A stretch of DNA of 33,827 nt from an uncultured cyanobacterium (GTDB lineage Bacteria; Cyanobacteriota; Vampirovibrionia; Gastranaerophilales; Gastranaerophilaceae). The notes below the pieces were generated by a model. It saw only the letters and a program-made list of their open reading frames with translations. It was not told the DNA's origin and searched no databases. Shown here one piece after another: positions 8,942-22,433 of the stretch; positions within the stretch are counted from its first letter, which is position 1, and each line of letters begins with the position of its first letter. The stretch lies in the NCBI GenBank assembly GCA_945487905.1, contig CALYTW010000011.1:1-33827 (forward strand), written 5' to 3'. The position numbers were made by a program, and so were the translations under genes.

Positions 8942-9979
8942 ATGGCTTCAATTTCAATTAACACCAACCTTGCGTCTCTGACGGCGCAAAGAAACCTCTC
9001 TCAGGCAACTACAGGTATGAATACCGCTATGGAAAGATTGACAACAGGTTTCAAAATTAATTCTGGTAAAGACGATGCAGCAGGTTCAGCAGTATCAACA
9101 TTAATGGAAGCTCAAATTTCAGGTTACGATGTGGCTGAATCAAATGCAACAATGGGTTTATCACTATTAGATACGGCAGAAGGCGTTCTTGATATCGTAG
9201 ACGGATACCTTCAACGTATCAGGGACTTGACCGAACAAGCAGCCAACGGTACTTACGGTACTTCTTCGATGAAAGCTATAAGAACCGAAGTTGAACAAAG
9301 AATGTTAGAAATTAACCGCCTGTGCGAAGTTATCGATTTTAACGGCATACAATTGCTCGATGGTACAAGCATTGCAGTTACTTCTCAAAAAGGTATTAAC
9401 CTTCAGGTTAGCAACAATGCAGGAGATTCAAACATTATTAACTTGAAATATACATTATTTGAATCAGCAAAATGTACTTCACTTTTTGTTGACAAAAATG
9501 AACACGCAGGTTCGGGCAATACTTGGTATACAAGAAGCAATACAAACGAAGAAACTAATGCTCTTAAGGCAAGAATTACTGGTACTGCATCAGGCGGCTA
9601 CGATTACAGCGCTAAATACGGAGCGCTCAATGCTTCTGACTATGCTGACGGTAAGTTGTCCTGTATAACTGCAATCTGTGAGGCAGTATACACAGATGAT
9701 AACACTGCACGTGAATTCCTCTACTTCATTGACGATGCAATCGAAAATGTATCTAACAGAACGGCATTAATCGGTGCTTATATGAATCGTGTTGAATCAG
9801 CTGTAGATGCAATAAGTGTACAGAAAGAAAATATCGTTTCAGCTCATTCCTCAATCAAAGACGCTGATGTTTCAACTGAATCTTCAAATTATATTAAATA
9901 TCAAATATTACAGCAATCATCAGCAACACTGTTGGCTACGGCTAACCAACAGCCAAGCATAGCTCTGAATTTGGTATAG
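8942..9979 (+). CDS. fliC: Flagellin
   Basis: 345 aa. Flagellin is the filament subunit, exported through the flagellar type III pathway. The N-terminal D0/D1 helices are clear: SINTNLASLTAQRNLSQATT, then ERLTTGFKINSGKDDAAG, then GLSLLDTAEGVLDIVDGYLQRIRDL. The C-terminal D1/D0 helices are NRTALIGAYMNRVESAVDAI, then DADVSTESSNYIKYQILQQS, ending in ANQQPSIALNLV. The middle (about residues 140-260) is short and variable with no recognisable domain, giving a compact flagellin. AAGGAG precedes the ATG at good distance. It is a single gene, closed by a hairpin at 10022-10046, and lies outside the basal-body operon as flagellin genes often do. Confidence 0.94.
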   Translation: MASISINTNLASLTAQRNLSQATTGMNTAMERLTTGFKINSGKDDAAGSAVSTLMEAQISGYDVAESNATMGLSLLDTAEGVLDIVDGYLQRIRDLTEQAANGTYGTSSMKAIRTEVEQRMLEINRLCEVIDFNGIQLLDGTSIAVTSQKGINLQVSNNAGDSNIINLKYTLFESAKCTSLFVDKNEHAGSGNTWYTRSNTNEETNALKARITGTASGGYDYSAKYGALNASDYADGKLSCITAICEAVYTDDNTAREFLYFIDDAIENVSNRTALIGAYMNRVESAVDAISVQKENIVSAHSSIKDADVSTESSNYIKYQILQQSSATLLATANQQPSIALNLV

Positions 9980-17495: not shown

Positions 17496-19154
17496 ATGAA
17501 AATTAACAGTATTAATTCGGTAGTCGGACTAAATCAAACTAACAATCGACACGAATATTTACCTGCTTTTAAAACAGTTCCAAAACAATTTAACAAAGAA
17601 TTATTAATTATTCTTGACGGATACGGAATTAAAAAAGGCGGGGCAAAAAACCCGTTTGATGTCGCAAGGATGCCTTTTTATAAATCATTGATTCACAATT
17701 CATACGGAGATACTTTATTCAGACCGATTGAAGCATCCGGATCTTTTGTAGGGCTGCCTGCTAAACTGGCAGGGAGTTCGGAAGTCGGACATAATAATCT
17801 CGGTGCGGGAAGAATGATTCCTCAAGACTTGATGGTTATTGATAATGCAATTAAAGACAGAACTTTCCATGTAAACAAAGCGTTCAAGGATTGCATGGAT
17901 CATGTAAGAAACAACAATTCAACCTTACATTTGATGACGTTGCTTAGCGACGGTTATGTACACAGTTCAACGGAACATCTGCATGAATTGATTAAAATGG
18001 CATCAAGCAGATGCATCCCAGATTTAAAAGTTCATGCATTTTTAGATGGCAGAGATTGTTTGGAAGGTACTGCAGTTGACTTTGTTGCAAGAACGAATAA
18101 AGTATTAGAAGACTGCGGTTACGAAAAAATTGCTTCCTTTATCGGTATGAAATACCCGATGGACAGATCCAGAAACTGGGAAAAAACCGGTGTTGCATAT
18201 AATCTTCTTGTAAACGGCAAGGCAGATTATCAAGCTGAAAAATTTGAAGATATCTTTGAAAAACTTCATACTTTTAAAAATGAACCCGGAAAATTCCTTG
18301 AAAAAGACATGCCTCCGGTTATTTTAAGCGGATTTAAACCTATACAGGATAACGATGGTGTAATCTTTACAAATTACAGAAATGACAGAACTCGTCAATT
18401 AACGGATGCAATTACCCAGCTTGAATGCTCAGCACCATTCTTAAACGAACAAAGAAGGCTTCAAAACCTGAACTTTGTCTGTATGACAGAGTATGATCCT
18501 TCGTATCATCTTCCTGTCGCATTTCCGGCTCAAGTACATTCAAATACTCTTACTCAGGTATTGAATGACCAGAAATACAATCCTTGGATTGCTGCCGAAA
18601 CAGAAAAACAAGCTCACGTTACCTTCTTCTTTGACGGTAAAAAACATGTAAGATTTTCTGATACAAGTTATTTCTTTCCTTCATCGGATCATCAAAAATT
18701 ACATCCGGCAATGGAAGCTCCGACTTTAAGGGATTTGATTATGAGCTGGATGGATAATAAAAAGTCAAAAGCAATGGTTGTTAATTTTGCGAATCCGGAT
18801 ATGATAGGGCATGACAATAACTTCCAAAAAGGTGTAAAAACCTTAAACTTCCTTGACAGAGTGTTATTCCGTATTGTTGATACGGCAAGAGAAAACAAAA
18901 TAGCAACCATTATTACAGCTGATCACGGAAATATTGAAGACATGACTCATGGTGGTCATACAAGTAATCCTGTTCCTTTCATAGCTGTTCTTCCGGGTTT
19001 TGAAAGATTCATTCAGTCAGGCAAAGTATTCCTTGATGATGCTAAAGATGCGGCGATCAACAGAGTTGCACCGTCATTTTTGGATTTGCTCAAGGGTGCT
19101 GAAAAACCTGACGTTATGTATGACAGTATGATTAAGACTAACGGTATGAAGTAA
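17496..19154 (+). CDS. Diverged cofactor-independent phosphoglycerate mutase paralogue 1
   Basis: 552 aa in the alkaline phosphatase superfamily, closest to GpmI. After a 34-residue N-terminal extension (MKINSINSVV...) the catalytic domain starts at LLIILDGYG. The metal/phosphoserine core is complete: D41, the nucleophile S95 in GSSEVGHNNLGAGR, D435 and H439 in NPDMIGHD, D476 and H477 in TADHGN, and H488. The insertion domain keeps VHSSTEH and DGRD (184-187). The next substrate motif, GRYYAMDRD in true mutases, reads GMKYPMDRS (217-225), so one phosphate-binding arginine is missing. It may still be a mutase, or an altered phosphotransferase. AAGGGG precedes the ATG. It heads a rightward group of three genes; a second paralogue lies 1.6 kb downstream. 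Confidence 0.8.
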   Translation: MKINSINSVVGLNQTNNRHEYLPAFKTVPKQFNKELLIILDGYGIKKGGAKNPFDVARMPFYKSLIHNSYGDTLFRPIEASGSFVGLPAKLAGSSEVGHNNLGAGRMIPQDLMVIDNAIKDRTFHVNKAFKDCMDHVRNNNSTLHLMTLLSDGYVHSSTEHLHELIKMASSRCIPDLKVHAFLDGRDCLEGTAVDFVARTNKVLEDCGYEKIASFIGMKYPMDRSRNWEKTGVAYNLLVNGKADYQAEKFEDIFEKLHTFKNEPGKFLEKDMPPVILSGFKPIQDNDGVIFTNYRNDRTRQLTDAITQLECSAPFLNEQRRLQNLNFVCMTEYDPSYHLPVAFPAQVHSNTLTQVLNDQKYNPWIAAETEKQAHVTFFFDGKKHVRFSDTSYFFPSSDHQKLHPAMEAPTLRDLIMSWMDNKKSKAMVVNFANPDMIGHDNNFQKGVKTLNFLDRVLFRIVDTARENKIATIITADHGNIEDMTHGGHTSNPVPFIAVLPGFERFIQSGKVFLDDAKDAAINRVAPSFLDLLKGAEKPDVMYDSMIKTNGMK

Positions 19155-19207
19155 TATCGGAGTATAAGCGGAGAGAGTTTCAAGTTAATAAATGTAAAGG
19201 AATTGAT

Positions 19208-20728
19208 ATGAAAATCTACGCACTAGCCAATATAAACAGCAACAATAACGGTTTAAGCATGGCAAAATTGCCTGCGAAAGAAACTCCGGCATCGGCATCA
19301 TTTCAACAAACAGAGTTGAGCAATGTATATTACATACATCCGAGTTTTATGGGTGCAAAAGAAGCTCGCCTTTTAAAAAAAGGACCGGTTTTGAACAAAG
19401 GTTATCGTGATATTACGGCGAAATATCCGGAAATGGGTATTTTTGAATATTTAACAGGATGGTATCCGCCGGCAATTGCTTCTTATCGAGAAAAAAGCTC
19501 GCATGAAATGTATAAAGAATTTCTCTATGAGGTTACAGGGAATGAGGCGTTATCAAAATCCTTTATAGAAGAAATTACCCAAAATCCTTTGAATTCAGAT
19601 GAAAATATGAAGCGCCTGCTTGGTTTATTTAATAATGATAAAGACAGTTTTAAGAGCTGGTATTATCACAAAGACGGTTATCAAAGAGCTTATGAAAAAT
19701 ATTTCAAAAAAGAGATTTTTGAAAATGACAAAGTTTCTGTAGAAGATATGGTAAAAATTTCTCCGAATCTTATGATAGAAGCTTTGAAGCTCAAGAGTTT
19801 GAGAACAGCAGGAAGTCAAGATTTTACACTGGGCAAACTTCCTGAAGAAATAGGCAGTGTTGAAGATTTTAGGGCATTAACTCAAGAGGTCAGAAACTCT
19901 GAGCTTGTCAAAGAATTTGTTGAATTCAGAGATTTTATGGAGGATTTGGATGCATTTTCGGCAAAATATCCCGAAGCAAAGAAAAACGCAGTTAATCCTG
20001 CAAGGTTTGCAAAAGATTTCTTGAAATCCAAAATTTCAGGTTATTTGAAAGCTTCAAGCGAAGAAGAAAAAGCTGAGTTGGAAAAACAAGTTCCGTTTTT
20101 ACGGCTGATGAAACCGACAACAGTCAATGTAAACGGCAAAAATTACACGTATTCTCCGATTTTGAGACCTTATTCCACAAAATTACTCTTTGCTCTTGAT
20201 CCGGAAGGTGCAAAACACAGGTATTTTGTAACTATGGAAATGTTTAATCCTGCGGAAAAAACATGCAAAAATGCTGCTGACAAAGAAAATTCCGCAATGC
20301 GTCCGGATTCTCCATATTTGAATGCTGTTGTAGATTACTATCTAAGAGCAAACGGATGTGAAAATGTTCCGGAAATGATATTCTATGATTATGGAGCAAA
20401 TGCTGTAGTAAGACCTTTTATCAAAGGAAAACATATAAAACCCGAAGGCAGAACCGATGATTTGGGTGTAATCTATGAAGATACAGCACTTAAAAACGAG
20501 CTTAAACCGCTTGCCGACAGAGGAGTGTTTATTACAGACTGTTTCTATGAAAACTTTATACAGGAGGAAGGAACTGGAAAAACGCTTGTTGTTGATAACG
20601 GTCATGCTAAATACTCAAATGCTCTCCGCCCTGGAGTTAAGATGATTCATATGGGCTTTGCGGATTTGTACGGCAGGGATTTCGTTTCTTTGGATGCAAG
20701 TATTCAGAGAACCGAAAATATACATTAA
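19208..20728 (+). CDS. Unknown 506-aa protein with possible kinase-like catalytic loop
   Basis: I do not recognise the family. There are no membrane helices or signal peptide. The N-terminus (MKIYALANIN..., with F32 in ASASFQQ) resembles the extensions of the two flanking mutase paralogues. Residues 60-300 are helical and charged. Residues 300-500 contain a pattern like the C-lobe of protein or aminoglycoside kinases: VVRPFIKGKHI (about 400-410, hinge-like), then ITDCFYENFI with D444 and N449 (D-x4-N), then LVVDNGHA with D463 (D-x-G). No clear glycine-rich loop is seen; a beta strand with possible lysine could be KHRYFVTMEMF (336-346). Kinase fold is inference only. AAAGGA precedes the ATG. 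Gaps to the neighbours are 53 and about 49 bp, consistent with an operon. Confidence 0.6.
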   Translation: MKIYALANINSNNNGLSMAKLPAKETPASASFQQTELSNVYYIHPSFMGAKEARLLKKGPVLNKGYRDITAKYPEMGIFEYLTGWYPPAIASYREKSSHEMYKEFLYEVTGNEALSKSFIEEITQNPLNSDENMKRLLGLFNNDKDSFKSWYYHKDGYQRAYEKYFKKEIFENDKVSVEDMVKISPNLMIEALKLKSLRTAGSQDFTLGKLPEEIGSVEDFRALTQEVRNSELVKEFVEFRDFMEDLDAFSAKYPEAKKNAVNPARFAKDFLKSKISGYLKASSEEEKAELEKQVPFLRLMKPTTVNVNGKNYTYSPILRPYSTKLLFALDPEGAKHRYFVTMEMFNPAEKTCKNAADKENSAMRPDSPYLNAVVDYYLRANGCENVPEMIFYDYGANAVVRPFIKGKHIKPEGRTDDLGVIYEDTALKNELKPLADRGVFITDCFYENFIQEEGTGKTLVVDNGHAKYSNALRPGVKMIHMGFADLYGRDFVSLDASIQRTENIH

Positions 20729-20777
20729 TAGCAAAAAATATTTTTAGAGGTTTTTATATATTAGAAAGTGTGTGTTG

Positions 20778-22433
20778 ATGAAAATAAATACAATTAACAG
20801 AGTTTGTTACAATTACAATAATACAGTCTCAGCTTCAAATAAAACAGAACGAAGCGGACAGAATATTAACTTTGAAGCTTTGACAAAGAGTTACAATAAA
20901 ATTATGCATATCGTAATGGACGGAGTCGGAATAAAAGATTCTGTTTCAACTAACCCGATTCTGGGAAATATGCCTTTTCTTACAGGGATGAAACACAATG
21001 CATTTGGAATGACTCTTTTCAGGCCGGTAGAGGCTGCCGGTAGGTTTGTTGGATTGGAAGATGGCGAACCTGGGAATTCTGAAGTCGGCCATGGTGTAAT
21101 GGGAACCGGCCGAAATATAAAACAGGCGATGGTAAGACTTGATGAAGCTCTTGAAGATGGAAGTTTTTTTGAAAATAAAGAATTCTTAAATGCAATGAAT
21201 TATGCAAAAAAGAATAAATCGACTTTGCATATATTGAGCAGTATCGGCTACAGCCATACGCATTCAAAGCTCGAACATATAGAAGCTTTAATAAAAATGG
21301 CAAGAGAAAACGGAGTCAAAAATCTTGCTGTACATGCTTTTCTTAACGGCGACGGGCCTACAAGTTCTTCTTCCATTCAATATTTAAACAAGTTAAATCT
21401 GATATTAAAAGAAAATGGTTATCCCCAAGTTGCAAGTATAATCGGAAGGAGTATTGCACTTGATAAATCAGGAGATTCTAGCAGGATTGAACAGGGATAC
21501 AGAATGCTCGTTGACGGTTCTAATTCACTACAGGTTGACAATATAAATGAAGGTTTAAAAAGGCAGCTGGAAAACCATGTAGGGGTTGAAATTCCGGCGA
21601 CTATTGTTAAAGGTTCTCCAAGAATTTCAGATAATGATGCAGTAATTTTTGCGAATTACAGAACCGACAGACCAAAAGGTTTGACAGCTTCGCTTGCCTA
21701 CAAAGATACTAACTATGAGTTCGTAAAAAAAGGACACAGGCCGGAAAACCTTTATTTTGTTACAATGACAGAGTATGACCCGAAATTTCAACTTCCGACA
21801 GCACTGGATACAATGAAATACAGCGGTACATTAAAAGAAGAATTGCTTGAAAGGGGCTGGCACATAACTTCTTGCGCTCAAAAAGAAAAGCATTCACATG
21901 TGACGTTTTTCTACAACGGTTCAAAAGATATAATACACAAAAATTTGAAGGATATTAAACTCCCTGGATGTGTTGATCCTGAAAAACTTCCGGAAAGTCT
22001 AAGAGAACAGGTTGAAATTCTTGAACAGGAAATGACAAATAACACTGACAAAAAGCATTTTATAGTAGCAAATCTTGCAAACGGAGATATTATAGGACAC
22101 AAGGGAAATCCCAAATTGAGTGTTAAAGCTGCGCAAGATATTGATAAAGCTGTTTTTGATTTGGTTCAGCACGCAATTGCAAATGACTACGCTGTTGTGA
22201 TATCAGCAGATCACGGCAATATTGAAAACGGACTTTCGACCAAACATACCGAAAATCCTGTCCCCTGTTTTGTTATTTTGCCGGAACATGAAACAGAAAT
22301 TAAAAACGGACTGGTAAAGATTGATGAAAGAGCGGAAGCTGCACTAAGAGATATAGCTCCGACAATTCTTGATATAGCAGGGCTTGCGAATGGCAATGCT
22401 ATGACGGGGAAATCTCTCTTGATTGAGGGTTGA
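20778..22433 (+). CDS. Diverged cofactor-independent phosphoglycerate mutase paralogue 2
   Basis: 551 aa from ATG 20778; GTG at 20772 is possible, but ATG gives the MKINTIN start shared with the first paralogue. The extension runs to about residue 40. The core is intact: D48 in IVMDGVG, S101 in GNSEVGHGVMGTGR, the D and H of ANGDIIGHKG, SADHGN, and KHTENPVP. The substrate pocket is altered: DGRD is replaced by NGDG (190-193) and MDR by LDK (228-230), and the SDGGVHS block reads SIGYSHTHS. Loss of DGRD removes residues that hold the glycerate in true mutases. I infer a metal-dependent phosphatase or phosphotransferase with another substrate. Ribosome binding is weak (AGAAAG). No terminator is seen after it. 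Confidence 0.78.
   Translation: MKINTINRVCYNYNNTVSASNKTERSGQNINFEALTKSYNKIMHIVMDGVGIKDSVSTNPILGNMPFLTGMKHNAFGMTLFRPVEAAGRFVGLEDGEPGNSEVGHGVMGTGRNIKQAMVRLDEALEDGSFFENKEFLNAMNYAKKNKSTLHILSSIGYSHTHSKLEHIEALIKMARENGVKNLAVHAFLNGDGPTSSSSIQYLNKLNLILKENGYPQVASIIGRSIALDKSGDSSRIEQGYRMLVDGSNSLQVDNINEGLKRQLENHVGVEIPATIVKGSPRISDNDAVIFANYRTDRPKGLTASLAYKDTNYEFVKKGHRPENLYFVTMTEYDPKFQLPTALDTMKYSGTLKEELLERGWHITSCAQKEKHSHVTFFYNGSKDIIHKNLKDIKLPGCVDPEKLPESLREQVEILEQEMTNNTDKKHFIVANLANGDIIGHKGNPKLSVKAAQDIDKAVFDLVQHAIANDYAVVISADHGNIENGLSTKHTENPVPCFVILPEHETEIKNGLVKIDERAEAALRDIAPTILDIAGLANGNAMTGKSLLIEG

What the first reader, a model, noticed from the sequence alone, without database searches (positions are those of the whole stretch)
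17496..22433. Three-gene group: two altered phosphoglycerate mutase paralogues around a kinase-like unknown
Two GpmI-type proteins of 552 and 551 aa, about a third identical by eye, flank a 506-aa protein in the same direction with gaps of about 50 bp. A housekeeping glycolytic enzyme would not be expected twice in tandem. Both keep the phosphoserine and metal core and both have changed the substrate pocket, in different places. With a possible kinase between them, the group could form a phosphorylation/dephosphorylation module on an unknown substrate.
Basis: partly seen in the sequence, partly recalled or inferred. Interest (0 to 1): 0.75.

Follow-up and report, generated by a model that had tools for sequence, protein, structure and literature searches.

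The report
Leader-tagged, remodelled glycolytic enzymes with kinase-like partner
A gut bacterium carries, besides its normal glycolytic phosphoglycerate mutase, two altered copies of that enzyme flanking a kinase-shaped protein; all three begin with the same kind of unusual N-terminal tag, so they probably do a new, tag-directed job rather than glycolysis.

Summary
P1 (17496-19154) and P3 (20778-22433) are iPGM (GpmI) homologues, 36% identical, flanking the same-strand 506-aa P2 with gaps of 53 and 49 bp. Both keep the nucleophile serine and all metal ligands. Each has altered a different part of the pocket: P1 R185M; P3 R153D, D154G and R191K. The same genome encodes a separate canonical GpmI. 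P2 has a protein-kinase-like domain (residues ~300-506), supported by its predicted fold, a sequence profile and its motifs, but its beta-3 lysine is Thr in all four P1-linked orthologues and Lys in 12 distant relatives. Only the P1-P2 pair is conserved, in four Gastranaerophilales genomes with different flanks; P3 was found only here. All three start with an N/Q-rich, acid- and Leu-poor leader (MKIxxIN...F-K/R/G). P2 relatives carry it too and sit beside leader-bearing PHP phosphoesterases and 4-alpha-glucanotransferases. Extra leader-bearing ADK, NDK (catalytic His to Tyr) and an independent tandem iPGM pair (one R185A) also exist. Most likely this is a targeted phosphoryl-transfer module derived from a glycolytic enzyme, with a possibly inactive kinase partner. 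Substrate, mutase loss and the leader's role are untested.

The parts
17496..19154 (+). P1: iPGM (GpmI)-like protein, 552 aa, R185 replaced by Met (codon 18147-18149), nucleophile Ser at 17778-17780
   Evidence: orthologues in three other genomes
17496..17594 (+). P1 N-terminal leader (aa 1-33, MKINSINSVVGLNQ...PAFKT), absent from the canonical GpmI
   Evidence: 34 residues precede 1EJJ V6 in P1, 9 in the canonical copy; composition
19208..20728 (+). P2: 506-aa protein, leader plus helical region plus kinase-like C-terminal domain
   Evidence: no Pfam match
19208..19384 (+). P2 N-terminal leader (aa 1-59), predicted disordered
   Evidence: pLDDT under 50 for residues 1-59
20105..20725 (+). P2 kinase-like domain (aa 300-506): K325 20180-20182, Thr in place of beta-3 Lys 20231-20233, D444 20537-20539, N449 20552-20554, D463 20594-20596
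20778..22433 (+). P3: second iPGM-like protein, 551 aa, R153D/D154G (21351-21356) and R191K (21465-21467), nucleophile Ser at 21078-21080
   Evidence: no orthologue in 383 genomes
20778..20897 (+). P3 N-terminal leader (aa 1-40, MKINTINRVCYNYNN...INFEA)
   Evidence: 41 residues precede 1EJJ V6

Best explanation
P1-P2 is a two-gene module of ruminant-gut Gastranaerophilales, to which this genome has added a second diverged iPGM paralogue, P3. P1 and P3 are iPGM-derived phosphoryl-transfer enzymes. The phosphoserine/two-metal centre is conserved (shown), so they can probably still take a phosphoryl group from a small phosphorylated substrate (inferred). The transferase-side pocket is altered (shown), so they probably release the phosphate or act on another substrate instead of interconverting 3-PG and 2-PG (inferred). 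P2 is a kinase-fold partner (fold supported by prediction and profile) that has lost the ATP-anchoring beta-3 lysine in the P1-linked branch (shown), so it more likely regulates or scaffolds P1 than phosphorylates efficiently (inferred). The shared disordered leader most likely sends all three to the same place (inferred), away from ordinary cytosolic glycolysis. One of the type III-type export gates encoded in this genome is a candidate route (speculative).
For: Separate canonical GpmI in this genome. Intact nucleophile and metal ligands with different pocket losses; R185M shared by all three full-length P1 orthologues. P2 adjacent to P1 in 4 of 4 genomes with P1 orthologues, with different flanks. 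Kinase fold: all 50 listed Foldseek hits for the domain are kinase-fold proteins, 35 with E<=0.001; VIA Z about 10 to PRPK/Bud32; family profile hits kinase catalytic loops at E=3e-4; a relative matches RfaY at 2e-6. Lys to Thr at position 342 only in the P1-linked branch. P2 relatives neighbour leader-bearing PHP phosphoesterases and GH77. Leader on extra copies of ADK and NDK. Independent leader-bearing tandem iPGMs in G077, one R185A. Leader composition is distinct: D+E 4% versus 10%, N+Q 23% versus 10%.
Against: No activity data. R185 loss alone may not abolish mutase activity; P1 scores above the TIGR01307 cut-off. P3 is found in one genome only and could be decaying, although all its catalytic ligands are intact. 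K325 of P2, invariant in the family, might substitute for the lost lysine. The leader motif alone is only weakly enriched genome-wide. No direct evidence of export or targeting.
Confidence: 0.4

Rival explanations
1. P1 and P3 are auxiliary phosphoglycerate mutases (isozymes for other conditions), P2 is an unrelated neighbour, and the leaders are lineage-specific N-terminal extensions without function.
For: P1 passes the TIGR01307 equivalog cut-off; most catalytic residues are intact; leader motif weakly enriched genome-wide.
Against: Pocket residues kept in Geobacillus and in all canonical Gastranaerophilales copies are lost in both; P1 has P2 beside it in 4 of 4 genomes with different flanks; leader-bearing iPGMs arose separately elsewhere, one again with R185 lost.
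Confidence: 0.25
2. An active kinase/phosphatase pair: P2 phosphorylates a small molecule or protein and P1/P3 remove the phosphate.
For: Kinase fold with catalytic Asp, Asn and Mg-binding Asp kept; P2 relatives sit beside PHP phosphoesterases.
Against: The beta-3 lysine is Thr in all four P1-linked orthologues while the 12 aligned distant relatives keep Lys.
Confidence: 0.2
3. Leader-bearing proteins form an exported effector class acting on another cell, delivered by a type III-type system.
For: FHIPEP export gates occur in 110 of 115 genomes searched, two in this one. The window and G059 loci lie on contigs with fliE-F-G-H-like genes; the second gate itself is on the G059 contig. Leader composition poor in D/E and L, rich in N/Q. 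Other leader proteins have calpain-like and weak PARP-like matches.
Against: No secretion data; the nearby genes also fit an ordinary flagellum (flagellin at 8942-9979). Linkage is not seen in L120 within the stretch read. PARP matches are below the Pfam cut-off.
Confidence: 0.2

Closest known systems
[quoted passage not shown] PDB 1EJJ)
   Same: Two-domain iPGM architecture, nucleophile Ser62, metal ligands D12, D403, H407, D444, H445, H462, plus H123, R261, R264 and K336
   Different: P1 R185M; P3 R153D, D154G, R191K; 31-36% identity to 1EJJ; 34-41-residue N-terminal leader in the window copies; second and third copies in one genome
Protein-kinase-like superfamily (Bud32/PRPK, RIO, RfaY, CK2)
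   Same: Predicted fold, catalytic Asp444 and Asn449, Mg-binding Asp463
   Different: No Pfam match for P2; beta-3 lysine replaced by Thr in the P1-linked branch; large helical N-terminal region
Chlamydia glycogen-metabolism enzymes with type III signals (PMC4829429)
   Same: Housekeeping-type carbohydrate enzymes carrying an N-terminal signal without a signal peptide; MalQ is a 4-alpha-glucanotransferase like the leader-bearing GH77 here
   Different: In Chlamydia secretion of the N-terminal fusions was shown; here export is only conjectured and the enzymes are extra copies

Membership tests
iPGM (GpmI, TIGR01307) | Model score above the curated cut-off | tested here: inconclusive
   P1 402 bits (met), P3 315 bits against a cut-off of 330.65 (not met)
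iPGM (GpmI, TIGR01307) | Nucleophile Ser and two-metal ligands | tested here: met
   all present in P1 and P3
iPGM (GpmI, TIGR01307) | Complete substrate pocket (H123, R153, D154, R185, R191, R261, R264, K336) | tested here: not met
   P1 lacks R185; P3 lacks R153, D154 and R191
iPGM (GpmI, TIGR01307) | Mutase activity on 3-PG/2-PG | not testable with these tools
   needs an enzyme assay
Protein-kinase-like superfamily | Kinase-like fold | tested here: met
   Foldseek prob 1.00, 35 hits E<=0.001 for the domain model; VIA Z about 10; predicted structure only
Protein-kinase-like superfamily | Catalytic-loop Asp/Asn and Mg-binding Asp | tested here: met
   D444, N449, D463; profile match over this stretch
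Protein-kinase-like superfamily (active kinase) | Beta-3 (VAIK) lysine | tested here: not met
   Thr at 342 in P2 and its three orthologues; Lys in the other 12 aligned members
Type III-exported effector | Secretion dependent on the export system | not testable with these tools
   only composition and gene-linkage hints

The most novel reading that the evidence does not exclude
Gastranaerophilales carry a class of leader-tagged, duplicated and remodelled metabolic enzymes (iPGM, ADK, NDK, 4-alpha-glucanotransferase, PHP phosphoesterase) with kinase-like partners that is exported through a type III-type machine to act on another cell; P1-P2-P3 is one cassette of it.
Probability: 0.18. Interest if true: 0.85.

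Novelty: new variant of a known kind. Interest (0 to 1): 0.58.

Why it matters
It shows a glycolytic enzyme duplicated and remodelled more than once in one bacterial order, each time with an N-terminal leader. It also outlines a kinase-like family without a Pfam entry that travels with phosphoester-acting enzymes. If the leader proves to be an export or targeting signal, it would give a sequence handle on what these common, largely uncultured gut bacteria send out or sequester.

Tried and rejected
Anti-phage defence: no PADLOC match for the three proteins. Phage or plasmid origin: P2 has no match in phage or plasmid records and no relative was confirmed in viral contigs. Trio as a conserved unit: P3 has no orthologue in 383 genomes. 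Leader as a motif detectable genome-wide: the regular-expression test gives only a weak excess (10 hits against 2.7 expected in the own-genome sample, 5 against 3.2 in G059; 38 against 12-27 in internal windows), so the class rests on family-level recurrence rather than on motif counts. The first association test (p=2e-10) is inflated because P2-family loci were fetched on purpose. Promoter and terminator scans gave no more than chance. Literature searches on the order plus secretion or effectors showed nothing on such a class in the papers listed, and Melainabacteria plus type III secretion returned three papers not centred on it. The roles assigned to individual pocket residues rest on memory of the 1EJJ literature; the EMBO J paper I looked up was not held.

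Full report
The finding. Three same-strand genes lie at 17496-22433: P1 (552 aa), P2 (506 aa) and P3 (551 aa from the ATG at 20778), with gaps of 53 and 49 bp. Terminator-like and promoter-like matches in the region are at chance level and none of the terminator-like sites falls in either gap, so co-transcription is likely but inferred.

Host. The window is contig 11 of a 1.66 Mb, 115-contig genome estimated 97% complete with 1.7% contamination. Most named P2-family relatives found by one scan are Candidatus Gastranaerophilales; the three closest records are from a rumen MAG set, roe deer rumen and yak colon.

P1 and P3. Both are full-length iPGM homologues. Mapped on PDB 1EJJ, both keep the nucleophile serine, all six metal ligands, H123, R261, R264 and K336. 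P1 has R185M; P3 has R153D, D154G and R191K. R185M is shared by the three full-length P1 orthologues. All 19 canonical Gastranaerophilales iPGMs aligned keep these positions. The divergence is broad: P1 orthologues have all changed 53 and P3 69 of 153 columns that are invariant in 20 canonical sequences. In a maximum-likelihood tree the four P1 sequences form one clade (100/99), and a supported branch separates P1 and P3 from the canonical enzymes plus 1EJJ; the P3 branch is long (2.32), so its exact place is unsure.

P2. It has no Pfam match. AlphaFold2 on a 16-sequence alignment gives a disordered residue 1-59 stretch, a helical region and a mixed C-terminal domain (mean pLDDT 76.5). Foldseek on the isolated domain lists only kinase-fold proteins in its top 50, 35 with E<=0.001; VIA-align gives Z about 10 to PRPK. 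Independently, the family profile matches the catalytic-loop to Mg-loop stretch of RSK and CK2 kinases at E=3e-4, and single members match RfaY (2e-6) and Bud32 (4e-4). K325 and D444 are invariant, N449 and D463 nearly so, but residue 342, the beta-3 lysine position, is Thr in P2 and its three orthologues and Lys in the other 12 aligned members. A pseudokinase or weak kinase is therefore the simplest reading for this branch.

Distribution. Among 383 genomes of the order, P1 orthologues occur in four: this one, G059 (64% identical), G163 (71%) and G402 (57%, partial). P2 follows P1 directly in all four, with different flanking genes. P3 has no orthologue beyond the P1 proteins and canonical enzymes. 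So the conserved unit is P1-P2, and P3 is an addition.

The leader. All three proteins begin with a 33-59-residue extension of the type MKIxxIN ... F-K/R/G that the canonical GpmI lacks. It recurs at the start of most P2-family members. In a set of 20 such N-termini, D+E is 4% against 10% and N+Q 23% against 10% in 881 background ORFs (the sequences are partly related, so p-values are optimistic). By motif alone the genome-wide excess is small. The stronger evidence is that extra copies of unrelated enzymes carry it. Examples are an ADK in G059 beside a canonical ADK, an NDK in G402 beside a canonical NDK and with its catalytic His replaced by Tyr, and GH77 proteins. Another is a tandem pair of iPGMs in G077, a separate clade from P1, one with R185A and one with E335Q.

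Module context. P2-family members in L070, L124, L128 and L131 neighbour homologous leader-bearing PHP phosphoesterases; in L123 the PHP domain is fused to GH77, and L124 and L128 have all three genes in a row. Kinase-like protein plus phosphoester-acting enzyme is thus a recurrent arrangement, of which P1-P2 is one version.

Mechanism. Shown by sequence or prediction: intact phosphoserine and metal chemistry in P1 and P3, altered pocket, kinase fold, lysine loss, conserved P1-P2 adjacency, shared leader. Inferred: P1 and P3 no longer act as ordinary mutases and instead dephosphorylate or transfer phosphate on another small phosphorylated substrate; P2 assists or regulates; the leader directs the proteins to a common place. 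A type III-type route is possible. FHIPEP export-gate genes occur in 110 of 115 genomes searched, two distinct ones in this genome. The second gate lies with fliE-F-G-H-like genes, and in G059 the P1-P2 pair is on the same contig. But the window also holds a flagellin, and nothing shows export. Chlamydia offers a precedent: N-termini of its glycogen enzymes, MalQ among them, drove type III secretion in a reporter assay (PMC4829429).

Verdict. iPGM duplication and kinase-like folds are known kinds; their combination, with the leader, is a new variant.

Noticed in passing
G000:C54:345-2438 (L158) and G000:C81:1112-3202 (L160): Two FHIPEP-type export gates in this genome and in most genomes of the order; the lower-scoring one occurs without the other in G066 and lies with fliE, fliF, fliG and fliH-like genes, suggesting a second, perhaps non-motility, type III-type system.
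   Followed up: partly
L119:2458-2886: Leader-bearing extra NDK with its catalytic His replaced by Tyr, directly after P1-P2 in the roe deer rumen genome.
   Followed up: partly
L110:7950-8726: Leader-bearing second adenylate kinase in G059 beside a canonical copy elsewhere.
   Followed up: partly
L123:9938-14421, L124:9668-14287, L128:3-4193: Module of P2-like kinase, PHP phosphoesterase and 4-alpha-glucanotransferase, with a GH77-PHP fusion in L123.
   Followed up: partly
L065:5978-9844: Tandem leader-bearing iPGM paralogues in G077, one R185A and one E335Q, besides a canonical copy.
   Followed up: partly
L226:11207-15538: Cluster of leader-bearing genes in G079, two with weak PARP-catalytic-domain matches below the Pfam cut-off.
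   Followed up: no
L123:14543-16009: Protein with a calpain-family (Peptidase_C2) match next to the kinase/GH77 module.
   Followed up: no
window 8942-9979: Flagellin gene on the same contig as the fliE-H-like cluster at the start of the window.
   Followed up: no
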